NCBI GenBank assembly: GCA_031213475.1
Contig: JARUPZ010000025.1
Span: 8,256,656-8,320,655, forward strand
DNA length: 64,000 nt
Origin: Nereocystis luetkeana
Taxonomy: Eukaryota > Sar > Phaeophyceae > Laminariales > Laminariaceae
Direction of reading: 5' to 3'
This document shows positions 24,003 to 40,426 of this stretch, piece after piece. The first letter of the stretch is position 1. Each line of letters begins with the position of its first letter. Both the position numbers and the translations under genes were made by a program. The notes under the pieces are model-generated. The model was not told where the DNA came from, ran no database searches, and was given only the letters and a program-made list of their open reading frames with translations.

Positions 24003-24968
24003 ATGCACTTGCCGCGAGTGACTCCAAACTTCGCTACGGTGCTTTCAGCGAAAGCCTGCTGTGATATCGTCAATGTCCCTGCATCCCAGTCTCGAGAGGT
24101 TCTTGATAGGAACGAACTGGTTCAGGTCCTCACACAATTGGTCACACCTACTCTTACGCCCCATCGCAAAATATATCTTCCACGTGCACAACTATTACGA
24201 TAGAAACGGCCCTCGCCTCCACAGAACGCATGGCACACGCATCAGCATCACACTGCTCAAACCCAAGACCCCTCATACCACGTACCAAGAGATGATGTCA
24301 TTGCCGCGACGCCTGCTTCAAACCATACAGGCTGCGAAAAACTTGACCACCTTACCGGACATGTAGACGTCCTCGCTTAGCTTTGATTGGATAAACGCCT
24401 ACTCGGCATCAAAACGGCATAAATCCAATCCCAACTCACACGCGATAGCAGCGAGCAAACGAATGCTCGCAACGGATGGGAACGATGAATAAGTCTCAAA
24501 ATAATCAACTCCTTCACGCTGTCCAAAGCCCCGCGCTACCAACCTGACCTTTGCCCGTACCACTCTGCCAAATTTGTTAACCTTCCAAGAATAAATCCAC
24601 TTAGCAGAGATCACGTTGATTCCGTTTCGTTGCTGAGTGCCTCTACCCTTCTCGCCCACCACAGCACCGAACGTCCTCGCGCGGTGCAGACCGTCAAACT
24701 CAGTGTCCATGGCGTGAAACCACACGTCTCCGTGTTCATCCTCGCACGCTTCGCGATATGAGTCGGGCGTTACCAACTCACTCGCAAGGCATGAAGGCAG
24801 TTCAGGGGCGGGCAGTAGCGGCGAAGACTGGTCGGCGATGACCATGGCGATAGTCTCCCGCGCAGCTAGCATCGGAACGACGCCATGCCGCGTACCCAGG
24901 CCCCCCTGCTGCCGCGACGCCGACCGCGTCACCGCCGGTGATACCCGCGTTTGCTGCTGTTGCTGCAC
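24003..24968 (-). pseudogene. Copia reverse transcriptase, broken
   Basis: ISAKWIYSWKVNKFGRVVRA, KVRLVARGFGQREGVDYFET and FPSVASIRLLAAIACELGLD are the conserved first half of copia RT, then FDAE and a stop at 24,399. Past the stop the homology goes on in pieces (AFIQSKLSEDVYM, then VHVEDIF where YVDD is expected), so the catalytic motif is altered. A Gln/Pro-rich linker upstream has another stop near 24,985. Confidence 0.88.
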
Positions 24969-25383
24969 CGGCGCCTACGACACAGTAGGCGGAGGTGTTG
25001 GCGAGACGTCTGGCGATGCAACGGTTGCGGGCGCCGCAGGGGGAAGGAACACGGGCAAGGCCTCTGTCGGTGCAACGGTCGCTGATATCGGCTCCTGCTG
25101 CTGCGGTGCGGACGACGCAGCCGGTAGGGACGTGGGCGAAGACTCTGGCATTACACCAGTCGATGGCGTCGACGGCTAGTTCCACACCTCGAAGCCCCGC
25201 GGTGCTTGCGGTTGCTGAGCTGGGTCACCGACAAGCCCCCCCTTGGCCGGTGACGGGGACCCGGCTAGCGCGATCCCTCCTTCGAACGGCGCGCGCCGAT
25301 AGCCCCACGTCACATCGGTCGAGTAGCTCGCGATGCTGGATGGCAACAGCATTATCTTGTTGCAATCCGAGGCGTGGTCGTTA

Positions 25384-26330
25384 TTATCTTGTGCAACCCG
25401 AGGCGTGGCCCCGGAGTTCGGGTAGAAGCATGGCTCGCCCTTCGGCTCTGACGTACTTGTGGCGTCCCGGCATCGTGTATGGAAACACCGGGCCCCTGTA
25501 AGGCCTCTCGTGGAACTTCTCGAACGAGCACATCATATCGGGCTTTTCATCTACTATCGCCATAAGGTTGAGCGCGTCGCACATCCACGTCTATGCTTCC
25601 GGCCACGTGCGATCGTAGTTGAGCGCCTTGGCCGGAAACTCCACGCCATCGAACATGGTCTGGAACTCCAAGAATGCGGCCTGACCTCCTTCGGCAAAAG
25701 ACCTAGCTTCCGCTCCACCCGCCCGTTGCACTTCGGACCGTAGACCGAGATGGACTCGCGGCGGATATTGTTCTCGGCCATCAGCCTTTGGAACTCGGTG
25801 TCAGTGAATTCGGAGGCGTTATCCGTGCGAAGGCATCAGGCTTCCCGTGGGCATTTACGGCCGCCAGGAAAGTGCGGAAACCGAGGGTGACGGTGGCCGC
25901 GCAATTGTCCGGCAGAAATACCTGGCCAGCCCATGTTGGTGGCGTCGTCGACGATAATCAAACAGTACCGAGCGCCGCCTGATGACGTCGGCGTGGGTCC
26001 TGCGAGGTCGGTAAACAGGTACTGCATCTGCTTCTCAGCACGGCACTAAGTGGATTTTGCAATGGCATTGCTGATCCCCTTCCCCCCCGCGCATTCGTCG
26101 CAATACCCCAAAACGTCCCATCACCTTGATGCCCACGTGACGAGCAGCCTCACGTAAAACGGAATCGTGGGCGTGGCAAAGAGAACAGTGCAGGTCGTTG
26201 ACGTCTATCCGTCTCTGCCCACCAGGCCTCAACACTGCTGCAGCAAGTGCGGGGGATTTCCCGTTCCTCGCTACCCGAGTGGCCTCTACGTAGTCACCGA
26301 ACTTCTCCTTGCAAAAAAACATTCGTCATT
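25384..26330 (-). pseudogene. Copia integrase with pre-integrase zinc motif, frameshifted
   Basis: A His/Cys segment (VNDLHCSLCHAHDSVLREA) is the GAG-pre-integrase zinc finger. It is followed after a frame change by MQYLFTDLAGPTPTSSGGAR and YCLIIVDDATNM, the start of the DDE core. A further frame holds ISVYGPKCNGRVERKLG with the third catalytic Glu. LNLMAIVDEKPDMMCSFEKF follows as the usual C-terminal part. At least two frameshifts separate these blocks. Confidence 0.85.
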
Positions 26331-26391
26331 TAGGCATGTGCGCCCCGTTGTGGTCAAGGGTAATGGCGGGTCCCTATTAAATCACGTTGAA

Positions 26392-26949
26392 CTAGCAAAG
26401 GTCGAAAGGGACCTCAGGCACACACGCCACATTCCTCAGAGTCACTGCTACGTCCCCAGCACAGTGCACCACTAGATCGACAAAACCGAAAAACTCTACC
26501 TCCATTTTCTTTCCATCGTCTACGATCAAAATCTTCTCATCGGGGGTAGGGGGTCTTTTGTTGTACAATAATGCACAATCACCAGTGCAATGGATTGACA
26601 CAGCACTATCTCCAATCAGAAACTTACTCCCAGGCCTTGTTGGCCTCACAAGACCATTACCAACAGAAAGAACATGCCACTTGCCTAAAGACGTCAAATG
26701 CTCCACGAAGAGCGTGGGCCACTTGATCTGCTGCTCGCTGCTGGACGTCGCTTGGCTTTCGATAGTCGAGGAAAGCGGTCCGCCCTCGTAAGCTCCCCCG
26801 GCTACTCCACTTCCCGGCTCTGCCTGACCTTGCACTCCGCCGCCCACACCACCCCCGCCCACACCGCCCCCGCCCCATTTTGGTTCGCCGCAGCCCACAC
26901 CGCCCCCGTCCCATTGCTGTACGCCTCCGCCCACACCGCTCCCGTCCAA
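26392..26949 (-). pseudogene. Copia aspartic protease region
   Basis: FLIGDSAVSIHCTGD stands where copia proteases have the (L/I)DSG(A/C)(S/T)xHxxG active site, and LRNVACVPEVPFDLC is the usual NVLYVPxxxxNLLS segment. The glycine after Asp-Ser is replaced, so the copy is probably inactive. A Gly-rich, repetitive linker (GGGVGGGGVGGGV) precedes it. Confidence 0.75.
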
Positions 26950-27119
26950 TTCGTCGCAGTGGATTACGAAGCCGGTTTGGTGCTGGGGTTAACCTCCCAG
27001 TGGTGGTGGTGCGCTGCGGTAGTGGTCCTGAGGGGCCGGAGGGCTATACGGAGGGTCCGCGACAATGTTTGCATGCGTACGGGTGGGCGAAGCAGTGCTG
27101 CATTGCCTGACCATACGAC

Positions 27120-27317
27120 CGAAAGCGTCACAAGTGCTGGTGACCGCCCAAAAAGCGTTCGGCGCTCGACAAATCGCGAATTATGCCCGAGAGCACCACA
27201 CCGATCATACTTGCACACTCCCCTCATCGATGCTCCTGGAGGCGGAGGTGAGTCTGGCTGATACCACCCACCTCCGGTGTTGCCTGCCCCACCAGCGCCC
27301 CCCGGCCTCTGCGGCTG

Positions 27318-27354
<37 letters not shown>

Positions 27355-27477
27355 GGCTGAGGTGGGCGCTGATGCTGGTAGCTATGGCCTCCACCCCCAC
27401 GCTGCTGCTGCTGGTCTCCCCCCAGCTGTCGCTGCTGCTGCTGCTGCTGCCGCTGTGACCCGGCGCCTCCATACTGC

Positions 27478-27514
<37 letters not shown>

Positions 27515-27582
27515 GCTCCTGCTGCTGCTGCTGCTGCCGCTCCTGCTGCTGCCGCTCCTGCTGCTGCGGTCGCAGCTGTCAA

Positions 27583-27616
<34 letters not shown>

Positions 27617-28624
27617 ACTGCTGTGGCCCGCCGCCTCCGTATGTTCCCTGAAAACCCCTACCAACGGCGAGGGCGTGGGGATCCGCCAACGGCGCTGGAG
27701 CCATTGACATGACTGCTGCTAACTTCCGCTCTTCCAACTCCTTCGTCTTGCAGTTAGCGTGGGAGGTGCGGATGTTTTCCTCCATGTCCGATCGCGTGAT
27801 ACCGGGCCGAAGCAAACTTGTGCGCTGCTCCACGTCGTAAATCTCGGACGGAAGACGACGTGAGAGTATGCGAGTAACTTCGCGGTCCGACTTGTGGATA
27901 CCTAATGCGGACACCACATTGGGTTGCCCCTCGGCACGGGTGAAGAACAGCTTGGGGTCCTCATCCCCCTGCATTCCAATATTCTCGAACTCTTTTCCGA
28001 GATGATCCCTCTCGGCATCACCCTGTGACTGATACCAATCCATCACAGCCTTCCACACTCCCTCCACCGACCCAGCGGCATGCATGCGTTCCTCCACAGG
28101 CTGTCCTTGCATGGCTTCCAAAACAAATTCCCATGCCTTCTCGCACTTCTCGACTCTCTGCTGCCCATGGGGATAAATCGACCGGTTTCGCTCCTCCGTC
28201 TCTCCTAAGCCTTCGGCTATCCGGATAGGGTCGCTTGTGGGCTCAAGCGCCCTGATCAGACCCCGCGCCGTCAAAACGATTGGAATCTGTGTGACCACAT
28301 GTGCAGTTGACTACGCCCATCAAACTTGGGTACCCGCATGCTATTTTGCGACGACAAGATGAGCGCCGGGGGAGTCTGGTGACGGTAGTCTGCCCCCGGC
28401 ACAGGCTGCCCAACACTTGCCTGCTGCATGGGCCGCCCGCTCCTCCCAGCGGTACCCTCCTGAGCCGCTGTCTCGGCGGACATCCTTAACGCTTTCTCCG
28501 TTGCCACCGTCGCGTCCCGCTCAGCCACTGTCGCGTCTCGGTCAGCCAACGTCGCGTCTCGCTCAGCCAGATTAGTCGACACCTCCGCAAGTCGCTGCCG
28601 AAGCAGCTCGATCTCTTCGCCCAT
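27120..28624 (-). pseudogene. Copia Gag, frameshifted, with Gln tract and decayed zinc knuckle
   Basis: Starts with a coiled-coil-like heptad segment (MGEEIELLRQRLAEVSTNLA, then repeats of ERDATVA/DRDATLA) and MRVPKFDGRSQLHMW. After a frame change near 28,280 it gives the Gag core (WEFVLEAMQGQP, VWKAVMDWYQSQGDAERDHL, TRILSRRLPSEIYDVE). CAG triplets then form a Gln-rich tract. Further on, CKYDRCGALGHNSRF recalls a CCHC knuckle with its last Cys lost. Confidence 0.8.
27315..27655. repeat. CTG/CAG triplet tracts inside Gag
   Basis: Interrupted runs of CTG on +, the longest near 27,316-27,350, 27,475-27,535 and 27,585-27,615, with CCG and TGCCGCTC interruptions. Open frames of poly-Ala (+ and -) or poly-Ser (-) across here are shadows; the Gag frame reads Gln. 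Confidence 0.9.
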
Positions 28625-30179: not shown

Positions 30180-31960
30180 ACAAAATCATGCCCAACTACA
30201 TTGGCTATTCCTTCTGTTGTAGTCCCACAACATGCTGTGATACCTCTAAACGCTGGCTGTGCCTTGTGTAGTTTAGGCATCAAGTACCGTATTATTGGTA
30301 GTTTAAAAGTTGGTTTCACAGATAATTTTCCAGATCCAGGGTCTTTGACGTGGGCTTTAGGGATTGGTAGGTATTCCGATTCCAGGAATTCTACCTGACG
30401 TTCGTTAATACTTGTCTTAATCGCTGATAGGGGTTCGCCCTCTATACGTTCATATATATCCCGAACCATTCAATTCCGCTGTGGCAACTCTTGTATAACA
30501 TGCTTTGCACATCACACATAATAAGCAGTTTGCTGCTTTGTCTATTTTTCTTATCACGACATCCCGGTGTGCGCGTTTGAAAGCTTTACCGGCTGCATCA
30601 AAGTTGATATTGCCTGTAATAGGGCGTGCCTCGCCTTTGTCTTGAGCAGATTCTATTAATAGCAGTCTCTTTATTTCATCGAATAACGCGTTCTTCCAAT
30701 CTATAAGGTCCACCGAGTGAATACCTAGTTCCGAACAAGTATCGGAAGCGTGACTTTCAATCGCGTCCAACAAGCACTCTAAGAAGGTTTTGTCGTTTTC
30801 ATCTAGATTCCTGGCAAAGTATGGTCTAAACCCTGCTTGCAATTTCAGTACGGCTTCTGCGTCAATATCCTTCAGGCATGAGATGTCAGTAGTTAGCACA
30901 CAGTGTTACCCATATTTGATGCACACAGCGTACTTTGACCAAAACGGTTCCGCGCAAATACAACTATATTGTTGGTCTTCATCCCTTCCTACTTTGGTGG
31001 TGTTCAGAAAGGAGTAACCCATCGTGTCGCCATACGTGAAGCATGGGACTGACTTAATATTGCATTCCCGAAATGCTCGACAGGAGGACGGGATGTGGCT
31101 CAGTATATTAGGGCGCATAAGCAGCCCACGTAAAGGGACTCCATTTGAAATCTCACTAGTGAATCCCGTAACAATAAGTTTGGGGATTTTTCGTTCCTTG
31201 ATTTCTGGTGGCGGGAACGGTTTCAAGGAGTGTCTTCTCAGAACATTGAAGGCTTGTTGTACATTCCTAGGGATCCCTTGTTGTCCAACATGTTTGATCA
31301 TTCGAAGCAGGGTTTTGGGGGCTAACTTGGAGATGTATGTTTCCACCAAATAAATGTGGTCTATAGTTAACTAACCCTGTAAAGTAATCTATCCTACGTT
31401 TCCAATCCCGGGACGAAAAGGTTTTTAGGCCTTGGTATCCAGCATTTATTTTCGTCACCCGTACACCATGTCTAGACCGTTTCACTGGTCTAGCATCAAA
31501 TCCATGTGATGGTATATGTGGGTAAACATGGTTTCGCTTTTTCTCTACGTGTGTTATAACCCTCAAGAAATGTACTTAATCTATGAATCCATGAATTCTC
31601 TCTGGCAATCCTATGATCTTGAATCAAGTTGAAGTTTAAAACACAGGGAAAGAATCTGGGGAATTCCTCTAGGATCACTATCGCAAATCTGGAGTCATCC
31701 ATCATATTAGCTTTACCTAGAATGTCTCCGGAATGGCTATGCTCCTGGAATCTAACGTACAGGCTCTTACATGTACGTCCAACATATGTCTTCCCGTTTC
31801 TAAGATTGACTATGGCATAAATAAATGTGACATATATATGTTATCTCTTGCTAATGGGGTACGTCTTAAAGAGCCTGGCTTTATAAGCCACTCAGGAATT
31901 AATTGGTCTTCCCTGTTTTTGTCGACAATTGGCTCCTGGGGGGATTTTTCCTCTACACTT
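30180..31960 (-). pseudogene. Penelope-like retroelement with N-terminal GIY-YIG endonuclease, 3'-truncated
   Basis: Read on the minus strand, the order is: a GIY-YIG nuclease (31,830 to 31,575), a Cys-rich connector (CNIKSVPC, YSCICAEPFWSKYAVC), then the start of a Penelope-type RT: VVIRKIDKAANCLLCVMCKA, ERIEGEPLSAIKTSINE and RYLMPKLHKAQPAFRGITA. The homology stops at about 30,180 in the microsatellite, so the catalytic RT half is missing. Frame changes occur near 31,835, 31,560, 31,300 and 30,460, and one in-frame TAA is at 30,906-30,908. A nuclease ahead of the RT is the permuted order reported for Chlamys/Naiad-type Penelope-like elements. Class is fairly sure; subfamily is inference. Confidence 0.78.
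31575..31830 (-). pseudogene. GIY-YIG endonuclease domain of the Penelope-like element
   Basis: FIYAIVNLRNGKTYVGRT (YVG at about 31,775-31,789) matches the GIY...YVG core. SLYVRFQEHSHSG supplies the following Arg and His. IVILEEFP and ARENSWIHRLSTF match the later E/N-containing helices. All key positions appear present, and the frame is open over about 85 codons. The upstream frame LRRTPLARDNIY joins only across a shift at a short TA run. Confidence 0.75.
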
Positions 31961-31969
31961 TTTACCCTT

Positions 31970-32190
31970 CTCTAACCACGCACCCCTAATCCTCCATATT
32001 TTCCTTAACTGAGGGTGATTGGAGAGAAGTTGAGAGAGGGTATTCTTGGCATCAGTGTTTTTATGTTATACTAGTTGTACATCACCAGATGGAGTCCTAG
32101 ATGCCGTGGAAGTCGCACTTAGTCCTTCCGTTGACCATGCAGGCGGAGATTGATGGATAGCATGGTATTATATGAATGTGTGGTATTATT
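31970..32190. other. No recognisable feature
   Basis: Flank of the Penelope-like element. Nothing recognised. Confidence 0.4.
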
Positions 32191-32196
32191 GTAAAA

Positions 32197-32400
32197 AACG
32201 GGGGGGTTCCGTGGGGGCTGGGGGGTGGGGGGCGGAGAGAGGGGGGGGGGGGTTAGACGGGATGTTAGAGGGGGGGGGGGGGGGGGTACTCGATAGGAGA
32301 GATGTACTCGATCTCATGCATGGCCGTAGTCGGGGGGGGGGGCGGGGGATTAGGGGATAGGGGCGGGAGTGGGGGGGGGTTAGACGGGGTGTTCAAGAAT
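32197..32400 (+). repeat. G-run cluster, strong G-quadruplex potential
   Basis: At least eight runs of six or more G on +, up to about 16 near 32,272-32,287. A GGGTTAGACGGG(A/G)TGTT block recurs at 32,250 and 32,377, so the tract is also a loose tandem repeat. Gly- and Pro-rich frames here are by-products. Confidence 0.85.
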
Positions 32401-32904
32401 AGATCTGGGAAAATCAACAAGTCTTGAAATCCGCCTCGCCACGTTGGCAGGCCTAGTGAGTCCAAATATTCTGGGGGGCATTGTAAAGAACAACCCCAGT
32501 GGTGCGTGCTTCCGGAGAATCGCATATTATAAATGGGTTAGACATATATATATGTCGCCATTTCCCTCCACCAAAAAATCGGGTCGCTTGGGCTACCTCG
32601 TGGGGCCGACTCCAAGGGCTTGATAATTTTATTACATTATGAAATACGTCAGAAATACATTTTTTTTTACTTTTGAACTTCGCGTTCCCATTGCAATTTG
32701 GCATAGGTCTAATTATAAGGTTTCCCCGTAAAAAAAGAAAGTCGGGAAGATCGTCGTCTCGCTAAAAGAAAGTCGCCTCGAGATTACGCCGCTAAATTAT
32801 ACCAGGGTACCTGGTACGTAAAAATTCAAAAACCTAAACATTTTACCACGACGTAAAAATCTGACGAGAGGTACTTTTACGGCATATTTATTTTCGTCGT
32901 GAGG

Positions 32905-33582
32905 ATGAACAGCTGCGAACAGACCGCAGCCAGGCCATCCCCATCTCCTAGCCTTGGCATCCCTCATCTCGTGCGCTGTAAGCAATCCACAGCAGCAGCA
33001 GTGTACCACGACGACTATACCGCTTCAACGTGTGGCCGCCCGGCACCGCGGGAGATAGATACTGCTTTCTGTCTGTGTGAAACCCATAAACTACAGCTCT
33101 GCGCTGATCGCATGTTGAGTTTGTTGTCGACGAGAGGAAACTTGTCCTCGGGTGCACGTAGCAAGGGGCATGCAACCACGCCAACAGCGAGCGCAAAAGA
33201 CATCCCCTTTGCACTGGTGCCCCGCCGAGCCGAGACCATCGTCAAGGCTGTGGAGAGCCGCAGCATGTCGGACTGGGGGTCGAGGGGGGTGGCGTTGGGC
33301 CTGTGAGGGCGACCGGGAGCAACAGCTCTCCAGTCAGTGCGTCTGGAAGATAGCTTTGGCTCGCTGGGACGCTCACCGGAGTTGGAATTTGTGGGCTCGA
33401 GAGGTGGGGGAGCTGCTGCTGTGGTTGGAGGTTCGAGCGGGGTGGAGGAGGCAGATGAAAAGCACGAGGATGATGAGCAGGGGGGGGGAATACCCAGGCG
33501 GCGGTACTGCAGCAGGTTGTGCTTGTGGTTGTATGTAGCGGGTCATTCGGAGCATATATATGGCCTTCGTACGAGATGATGT
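32905..33582 (+). CDS. Candidate gene with one in-frame TGA, unknown
   Basis: From ATG at 32,905 the frame runs 134 codons to TGA at 33,304-33,306 (AKDIPFALVPRRAETIVKAV, ESRSMSDWGSRGVALGL). It then stays open in the same frame to about 33,580, with an acidic stretch (GVEEADEKHEDDEQGGG). The stop follows G-rich sequence where a miscounted base or a short intron is possible. A longer frame lies antisense (33,242-33,955), which weakens both. No domain is recognised. Confidence 0.27.
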
Positions 33583-34084
33583 ACGAAGAAGCAGGACGGA
33601 GGATCGCTCCATATGATTGAAGCTTGCTGTCCAGATACGAGTGTTTTATATCACTACAGTAGTAATACCAGGTATGACACCTAGTCTGTTTGCTGTATGT
33701 ACTCGTACGTCCGGCAACTGCTGCTGTACGAGCTTCAGGCATACATGCAGTAATCAACACACACGTGATTGGACCCACGAATGGAAGGGGTGTACAACAA
33801 CAGTTTAGCGCCAATTGATAAGCGGAGGTTTTAGTTCTTGCGGGTTCATGCTTTGTATCTGGTAGGTGATGAGAGTATGAGGAATGCGCAATCGGCACAG
33901 GAAAAATAATACCTGGTAGATGAAAAAGCGGGCCGAGCGTCGAGATCTCCATCATTTCCGCAGACTACTCGCCAAACTGTGGTTCAAACGTCACGGCGAA
34001 CTTCGCGACGATTAATTTTGCCGGAAAATAACTGATACGACGTTCTTTCGCGACGTTTTTTTGTATTTTACGGGGAAACCCCCT

Positions 34085-34440
34085 ATTGGCCCAGCCATGT
34101 TTACCTGCACACGTTGCCGCATCTACTGTTGTAGCTCGACCAACTCTGGACGAGCTCCAACCGCACCAACACGATAAGGTTTCGTTTGTTTGTGTGTGCG
34201 TCCACAGAGCGCGCCGGGACTGGCATTGGTGCCATGTGTGCCTTGAGCGCGGTGGACAAACGTGGCCGAAAACAATGTTGAATAACACACGATGACACAG
34301 TGACGCAGCAGTGACACACACAAACAGGAAAGCTACGAGACAGGCACCCTACTCTCGTCCGACGAGGATGCCTTTTTCCTTGGAAAACCAAGAAAAAAAG
34401 CCTCGCGCTTCATTACTAGTAATTGGTGGTAATGAGGCGC
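34085..34440 (+). repeat. Dispersed repeat G, copy 1
   Basis: CACACGTTGCCGCA, GTGTGTGCGT, GCGCCGGGACTGG, GAGCGCGGTGG and ACAGGCACCCTACTCTCG recur in order at 35,978-36,320 in the same orientation. The unit is about 340 bp and diverged. Its end contains TTTTTCCTTGGAAAACCAAG, a short foldback. Confidence 0.7.
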
Positions 34441-40270: not shown

Positions 40271-40426
40271 TTTTATATTTTATAAAATTATGAAATACGT
40301 CAGCTGTGAGTTCGACTGATTATATGGTTGGTACTCAACTTTGCATGCTGCGTAGTATGTCTCGTCTATATCGCATTTTTATGCTTCGAACAGAAGAAGT
40401 ACCTTTGGGCTGTTCCTTTATAAAGA

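What the first reader, a model, noticed from the sequence alone, without database searches (positions are those of the whole stretch)
30180..31960. Penelope-like element with the GIY-YIG nuclease in front of the RT
Seen: on the minus strand a GIY-YIG domain (IYAIVNLRNGKTYVGRT) comes first, then a Cys-rich connector, then Penelope-type RT motifs (KIDKAANC, LMPKLHK). Known: classical Penelope/Athena elements carry GIY-YIG after the RT, while the Chlamys/Naiad group has the permuted order. Inference: this copy belongs to, or near, the permuted group. Its CxxxxxxC and C-x-C connector motifs may be characteristic of a new lineage.
Basis: partly seen in the sequence, partly recalled or inferred. Interest (0 to 1): 0.75.

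Follow-up and report, generated by a model that had tools for sequence, protein, structure and literature searches.

The report
Decayed alga retrotransposon, nuclease-first order
This is a broken, old copy of a jumping gene of the Penelope type in which the DNA-cutting part comes before the copying part, a rare but already described arrangement, here in a genome that is probably a brown alga's.

Summary
On the minus strand an open GIY-YIG frame (window 31496-31840; PF01541, E 5.4e-9) is followed by a connector with a C-x-C motif and the start of a Penelope-type RT, which breaks off at about 30195 near a (TTG)n microsatellite. The host genome (465 Mb) holds at least 10 loci of this family; 4 keep the nuclease, and in all 4 it precedes the connector. 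The longest copy (L006) runs nuclease, connector, RT, 3' UTR, with no GIY-YIG found after the RT. Other copies supply RT motifs B and C (FIDD, CIDD, YIDD). So this is one nuclease-first element; two separate insertions are rejected. No complete copy was found among the 10. The host is probably a brown alga (EsV-1-7 repeats; the controls hold no known eukaryote). Nuclease-first PLEs (Chlamys/Naiad) are known, and Chlamys is in print for Ectocarpus (passages). C-x-C fits that clade as I recall it and does not mark a new lineage. No RT tree could be built, and no library recognised the RT. New member of a known kind.

The parts
30195..32652 (-). Extent of the decayed nuclease-first Penelope-like copy in the window, 5' end at the higher coordinate
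   Evidence: 91.3% DNA identity to L006 over 30195-32024 and 76.6% over 32040-32652
31850..32652 (-). 5' leader, with C-rich tracts, shared with L006, L007 and L008
   Evidence: DNA alignment of four copies and blastn
31496..31840 (-). GIY-YIG endonuclease frame (114 aa), no Cys between the GIY and YIG strands
   Evidence: Pfam PF01541 E 5.4e-9; weak alignment with I-TevI, E 0.019; structure prediction of the single sequence failed (mean pLDDT 37.8)
30906..31575 (-). Connector in two frames (31575-31267 and 31370-30906)
   Evidence: open frames; similar to L006, L007 and L008; no Pfam hit
30954..30962 (-). C-x-C motif (CIC) of the connector
   Evidence: sequence; motif pattern found in all 5 copies that hold this region: window copy (as L001), L006, L007, L008, L019
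30450..30905 (-). RT N-terminal region with RT1-like motif KIDKAANC (about 30525-30548)
   Evidence: motif assignment recalled
30195..30469 (-). RT2a-like region with LMPKLHK (30263-30283); the copy ends here
   Evidence: 90.8% identical to the L006 RT piece over 76 aa
29942..30160 (.). (CAA)n/(TTG)n microsatellite, about 35 bp beyond the truncated 3' side
   Evidence: Tandem Repeats Finder

Best explanation
A dead, 3'-truncated copy of a low-copy family of N-terminal-endonuclease Penelope-like retrotransposons (Chlamys-like), probably in a brown alga. Shown: the order nuclease, C-x-C connector, RT in one element; several copies at different sites; a 5' leader, a long 3' UTR with repeats of about 100-bp spacing and an AATAAA near the 3' end; each copy truncated, interrupted or frame-broken. 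Inferred from the known families: when alive, the GIY-YIG domain nicked target DNA and the telomerase-related RT copied the element's RNA from the free 3' end (target-primed reverse transcription). The window copy lost its 3' half and ends near a (TTG)n tract, most likely by a deletion after insertion.
For: GIY-YIG by Pfam. Same order in window, L006, L007 and L008. L006 carries KVDKA, MPKLHK, motif A DFVAMYNNIP, FLDMEI, YDKRD and RFPH in order, and no Pfam family matched three frames downstream, 5300-3000. Motif B SGIFMGTAPAPDLAN and motif C FIDD in L036; the same motif B and CIDD in L037; YIDD in L026. C-x-C in 5 of 5 copies holding the region. No hammerhead. Host: EsV-1-7 repeats, 150 of 150 scored over cut-off out of 1718 candidates. 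Chlamys PLEs are printed for Ectocarpus (passages).
Against: No profile or solved-structure library recognised the RT: Pfam, PHROGs, NCBIfam, PADLOC, PDB. The RT call rests on motifs read by eye and recalled, from several broken copies. L006 itself reads FIEN at motif C and has lost part of motif B. No RT tree was possible. No single copy holds the nuclease plus an intact RT. No pseudo-LTR was found in L006. The definition of the clade is recalled, since its paper is not held.
Confidence: 0.86

Rival explanations
1. A canonical C-terminal-nuclease PLE whose pieces were rearranged, or a GIY-YIG piece and an RT piece brought together by two insertions.
For: The copies are fragmented and frame-broken, and inserts of other elements are common.
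Against: The same junctions recur at different sites: window and L006 share nuclease to RT2a, L007 and L008 share nuclease to RT N-terminus. A search with the window nuclease over the frames (30 aa or more) of 12 sources found it only in window, L006, L007 and L008. Genome-wide Pfam search gives 4 GIY-YIG hits, 2 of this family; the other two (L046, L047) show no match to this family's pieces beyond chance (E 0.26 or more). A quite different RT beside them was not looked for.
Confidence: 0.03
2. A separate, divergent lineage of nuclease-first PLE, outside both Chlamys and Naiad.
For: RT pieces are missed by every profile library tried. No relative confirmed in viral or prokaryote contigs, though few are expected there.
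Against: The nuclease lacks the Cys pair and the connector has C-x-C, as recalled for Chlamys; Chlamys elements are already known from a brown alga. Short decayed pieces are hard for profiles in any case.
Confidence: 0.2
3. A host gene made from a PLE (domesticated), kept for its nuclease.
For: The window nuclease frame is open over 114 aa with the expected conserved residues, while the nucleases of L006, L007 and L008 are broken. Most dN/dS values are below 1 (20 of 25).
Against: The frame breaks directly after it. Values below 1 are also seen in the connector and RT pieces and fit divergence of working elements before decay; in the nuclease they are 0.88, 0.34, 1.06 and 0.56. Expression was not tested.
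Confidence: 0.02

Closest known systems
Chlamys PLEs (N-terminal GIY-YIG; Craig et al. 2021, recalled; Ectocarpus PLE/Chlamys, PMC12477816, passages seen)
   Same: Nuclease before RT, C-x-C linker, no Cys pair in the nuclease, no hammerhead (all as recalled for Chlamys); a brown-algal host
   Different: At least 10 decayed loci found here, against 3 families and 4782 copies (27 intact) in Ectocarpus; relation to the Ectocarpus families untested
Naiad PLEs (animals; recalled)
   Same: Nuclease-first order and C-x-C linker
   Different: Naiad nucleases carry a CCHH Zn-finger motif (recalled); this one has no Cys at that place
Canonical Penelope/Poseidon, Neptune, Nematis, Hydra PLEs
   Same: GIY-YIG and telomerase-related RT in one element
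   Different: Nuclease after the RT (Penelope/Poseidon: PMC11167929, passages; the others recalled); here it comes first
Endonuclease-less PLEs such as Athena or Coprina (recalled)
   Same: PLE-type RT motifs
   Different: They lack GIY-YIG

Membership tests
N-terminal-endonuclease PLE (Chlamys/Naiad clade) | GIY-YIG domain N-terminal to the RT in one element | tested here: met
   4 of 4 nuclease-bearing loci have it before the connector; RT2a follows in window and L006, later RT motifs in L006 alone
N-terminal-endonuclease PLE (Chlamys/Naiad clade) | Linker with C-x-C motif (definition recalled) | tested here: met
   5 of 5 copies that hold the region
N-terminal-endonuclease PLE (Chlamys/Naiad clade) | RT with motifs 1, 2a, A, B, C, D/E of PLE type | tested here: met
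   Seen across several broken copies, not in one; motif definitions recalled; profile libraries miss it
N-terminal-endonuclease PLE (Chlamys/Naiad clade) | RT groups with the clade in a tree | not testable with these tools
   No eukaryotic PLE references held
N-terminal-endonuclease PLE (Chlamys/Naiad clade) | Insertion-in-fingers domain in the RT (recalled) | not tested
   No reference alignment at hand; the copies are broken in the RT
N-terminal-endonuclease PLE (Chlamys/Naiad clade) | No canonical hammerhead ribozyme (recalled) | tested here: met
   Rfam: no match at gathering in 6 sources; no hammerhead up to E 1 in L007 400-1900 and L006 3000-8300
N-terminal-endonuclease PLE (Chlamys/Naiad clade) | Pseudo-LTRs or tandem arrangement (recalled) | tested here: inconclusive
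   None in L006 3000-9000 at 25 nt or more; copies are truncated or decayed
N-terminal-endonuclease PLE (Chlamys/Naiad clade) | Insertion bias for microsatellites (recalled) | tested here: inconclusive
   Window copy ends about 35 bp from (TTG)n at a truncation; L006 and L036 stop matching near a TA-rich run; targets of the other copies not worked out
Chlamys | Nuclease lacks the CCHH motif (recalled) | tested here: met
   No Cys between GIY and YIG strands in 4 of 4 copies
Canonical C-terminal-nuclease PLE | GIY-YIG after the RT | tested here: not met
   None after the RT in L006 nor in the other fetched loci searched

The most novel reading that the evidence does not exclude
The family is a distinct, deeply diverged stramenopile branch of nuclease-first PLEs, neither Chlamys nor Naiad, nearly extinct in this alga; its RT is far enough from described retroelements that every profile library tried misses it.
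Probability: 0.18. Interest if true: 0.45.

Novelty: new member of a known kind. Interest (0 to 1): 0.27.

Why it matters
It probably adds a second brown-algal record to the short list of PLEs in stramenopiles: the Ectocarpus paper says PLEs had not been reported in TSAR before (passages). If the host is itself an Ectocarpus relative, the gain is smaller. The nuclease-first order is shared across a decayed, low-copy family, which bears on how old the permuted architecture is and whether it reached brown algae by descent or by transfer. It does not by itself change the picture of PLEs.

Tried and rejected
Two separate insertions, or a C-terminal nuclease: rejected, see the rivals. RT tree: not possible, no PLE references held. 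Attempts to fetch relatives: viral contigs with an RT piece (2 pattern matches, 0 confirmed), with the nuclease (4 matches, 0 confirmed), with the L037 RT frame (none), with a recalled YDKRDDF pattern (one match, L021, unrelated by its frames); genome contigs (and 20 matches, 0 confirmed). RT against Pfam, PHROGs, NCBIfam, PADLOC and PDB: only weak, unrelated names; the PDB hits were pentatricopeptide proteins over about 25 residues (E down to 8.2e-6) with no stretch passing on its own, and I take them as chance. Rows dropped: C27 (35%, E 0.006) and C32 (E 0.245) are left out of the locus count; the RT1 row was read off-frame and one row had no synonymous change, and both are left out of the 25. 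Structure prediction of the nuclease finished only with mean pLDDT 37.8 from a single sequence: useless, so no fold search was made. The ribosomal RNA search for the host gave no answer. The clade's founding paper is not held.

Full report
What is there. On the minus strand of the window the 114-aa open frame 31496-31840 is a GIY-YIG nuclease (PF01541, E 5.4e-9). It aligns weakly with two chains of the I-TevI nuclease domain (mutants, as I recall; E 0.019 and 0.051), with Y8, Y19, R30, E81 and N96 at conserved places (their roles are recalled). A single-sequence structure prediction was useless (mean pLDDT 37.8). Downstream in the same sense come two connector frames (31575-31267 and 31370-30906) with C-I-C at 30962-30954, then KIDKAANC (about 30548-30525) and LMPKLHK (30283-30263). 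The copy stops at about 30195, some 35 bp before a (TTG)n tract. At least three frame changes and one in-frame stop make it a pseudogene. Pfam finds nothing in the connector or RT frames.

One element, not two. The window lies in an unnamed 465-Mb genome of 1987 contigs. Searches with the nuclease, the RT N-terminal region, two RT pieces and the RT C-terminal region give 10 loci: C25 (window), C3 (L006), C19 (L007), C4 (L008), C39 (L019), C14 (L020), C31 (L026), C1 at 2.38 Mb (L035), C1 at 10.68 Mb (L036) and C40 (L037 and L038). The tool states that such counts are lower bounds. Two weak places, on C27 and C32, are left out. The two C40 pieces are counted as one copy: an insert of about 6.2 kb, which begins and ends with the same 19-bp terminus in inverted orientation, splits it. 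Four of the 10 loci keep the nuclease, and in all four it precedes the connector and the RT N-terminus. Window and L006 are 91.3% identical over 1852 bp from the nuclease side into the RT, and share the 5' leader at 76.6%. Next to the PLE they also share a 1.4-kb repeat, but in opposite orientation relative to it; the remaining flank matches are short. I take them as separate insertions.

The RT. L006 is the longest copy: nuclease (7250-6908, -), connector, then KVDKA, MPKLHK, DFVAMYNNIP, FLDMEI, YDKRD and RFPH in order, and a 3' UTR with direct repeats of 78 and 40 nt spaced 93-107 bp. Similarity between L006 and L036 runs on to L006 3159, with an AATAAA shortly before the end in both. No Pfam family matched three frames of L006 5300-3000. 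A search with the window nuclease over the frames (30 aa or more) of 12 sources found it only in window, L006, L007 and L008. L006 has lost part of motif B and reads FIEN at motif C. L036 reads SGIFMGTAPAPDLAN and FIDD, L037 the same motif B and CIDD in one 213-aa open frame, and L026 YIDD. These are the palm motifs of a reverse transcriptase as I know them. In 3000 dinucleotide shuffles of each of three stretches no more than one motif in order was ever reached, against 6 in L006, 5 in L026 and 2 in the window. The motif expressions were recalled and partly tuned after seeing the sequences, so this control is weak. Against this reading, no library recognised the RT (Pfam; PHROGs 52; NCBIfam 103; PADLOC 104; PDB 26, 82, 105, 113).

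Connector and nuclease motifs. C-x-C is present in all 5 copies that hold the region (window copy, L006, L007, L008, L019). Between the GIY and YIG strands none of the 4 nuclease copies has a Cys.

The host. EsV-1-7 repeats (PF19114) gave 1718 candidates, of which 150 were scored and all 150 passed the cut-off; 0 of 14 control genomes had any. The 12 control genomes named are bacteria and archaea, and I know of no eukaryote among the 14, so the control does not set brown algae apart from other eukaryotes. The expansion of this family in brown algae is recalled; on that basis the host is probably a brown alga. Its species is unknown. Genome-wide, Pfam GIY-YIG gives 4 hits: window, L006, and two others (L046, L047) without a match to this family's pieces beyond chance; L047 looks like UvrC by reading.

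Decay. Of 25 usable pairwise comparisons of window pieces with other copies, 20 give dN/dS below 1: nuclease 3 of 4 (0.34 to 1.06), the connector and RT N-terminal pieces 17 of 21 (0.27 to 2.04). The pieces are short, overlap and partly lie in shifted frames, so single values are noisy. The pattern fits copies that diverged while the protein still worked and decayed later; no formal test was made. No complete copy was found among the 10 loci.

What is known. The Ectocarpus TE paper (PMC12477816, passages) lists PLE/Chlamys with 3 families, 4782 copies, 27 of them intact, and says PLEs had not been reported in TSAR before. PMC11167929 (passages) describes the canonical PLEs of the Penelope/Poseidon clade as RT then C-terminal GIY-YIG and cites Craig et al. 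2021, whose title names a clade with permuted domains. That paper is not held. What I say of its content (C-x-C linker, CCHH motif absent in Chlamys, insertion-in-fingers domain, microsatellite bias, no hammerhead) is recalled. Of the papers listed by the searches for brown-algal, stramenopile or kelp PLE reports (4, 4 and 0 papers), only the Ectocarpus paper is on the subject by title and abstract start.

How it worked. Inferred from the family: the nuclease nicks the target and the RT copies the element RNA from the nick. The window copy cannot do so, since it lacks the RT from motif A on. Whether the (TTG)n tract was the target or only lies near a later deletion cannot be told from one truncated end.

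Verdict. The connector motifs do not mark a new lineage on the evidence here. A new member of a known kind, modest interest.

Noticed in passing
window 40288-40380; L007 429-669; L006 8045-8129; window 32606-32652; L037 6912-7172: A module of about 250 bp upstream of the PLE 5' leader in L007 (85.6% to L037 over 250 bp), present in part before the leader in L006 and the window copy, also occurs alone at window 40288-40380 and inside the RT of L037. Either a small mobile repeat or a PLE-derived leader that moves by itself.
   Followed up: partly
L037 7890 to L038 4232; L007 3370: Two PLE copies are cut by inserts with the same terminus TGTGAAGATATGGCCGAGG; at C40 the other end is its reverse complement, about 6.2 kb away, with TTTC on both sides.
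   Followed up: partly
window 32714-34085: A 1.4-kb repeat, 88.7% identical to L006 96-1474, lies near the PLE in both loci but in opposite orientation relative to it.
   Followed up: no
window 24402-28310: Remains of a Copia-type retrotransposon on the minus strand (RVT_2 E 2.9e-11; gag and Pol_BBD below cut-off).
   Followed up: no
L007 5265-9899; L008 1979-3700: By reading of the frames only: a Gypsy-like polyprotein in L007 and a LINE-like RT in L008 near the PLE copies.
   Followed up: no
L006 4012-4251: The 3' UTR of the family holds direct repeats of 40 and 78 nt spaced 93-107 bp, with matching stretches in L035 and L036.
   Followed up: partly
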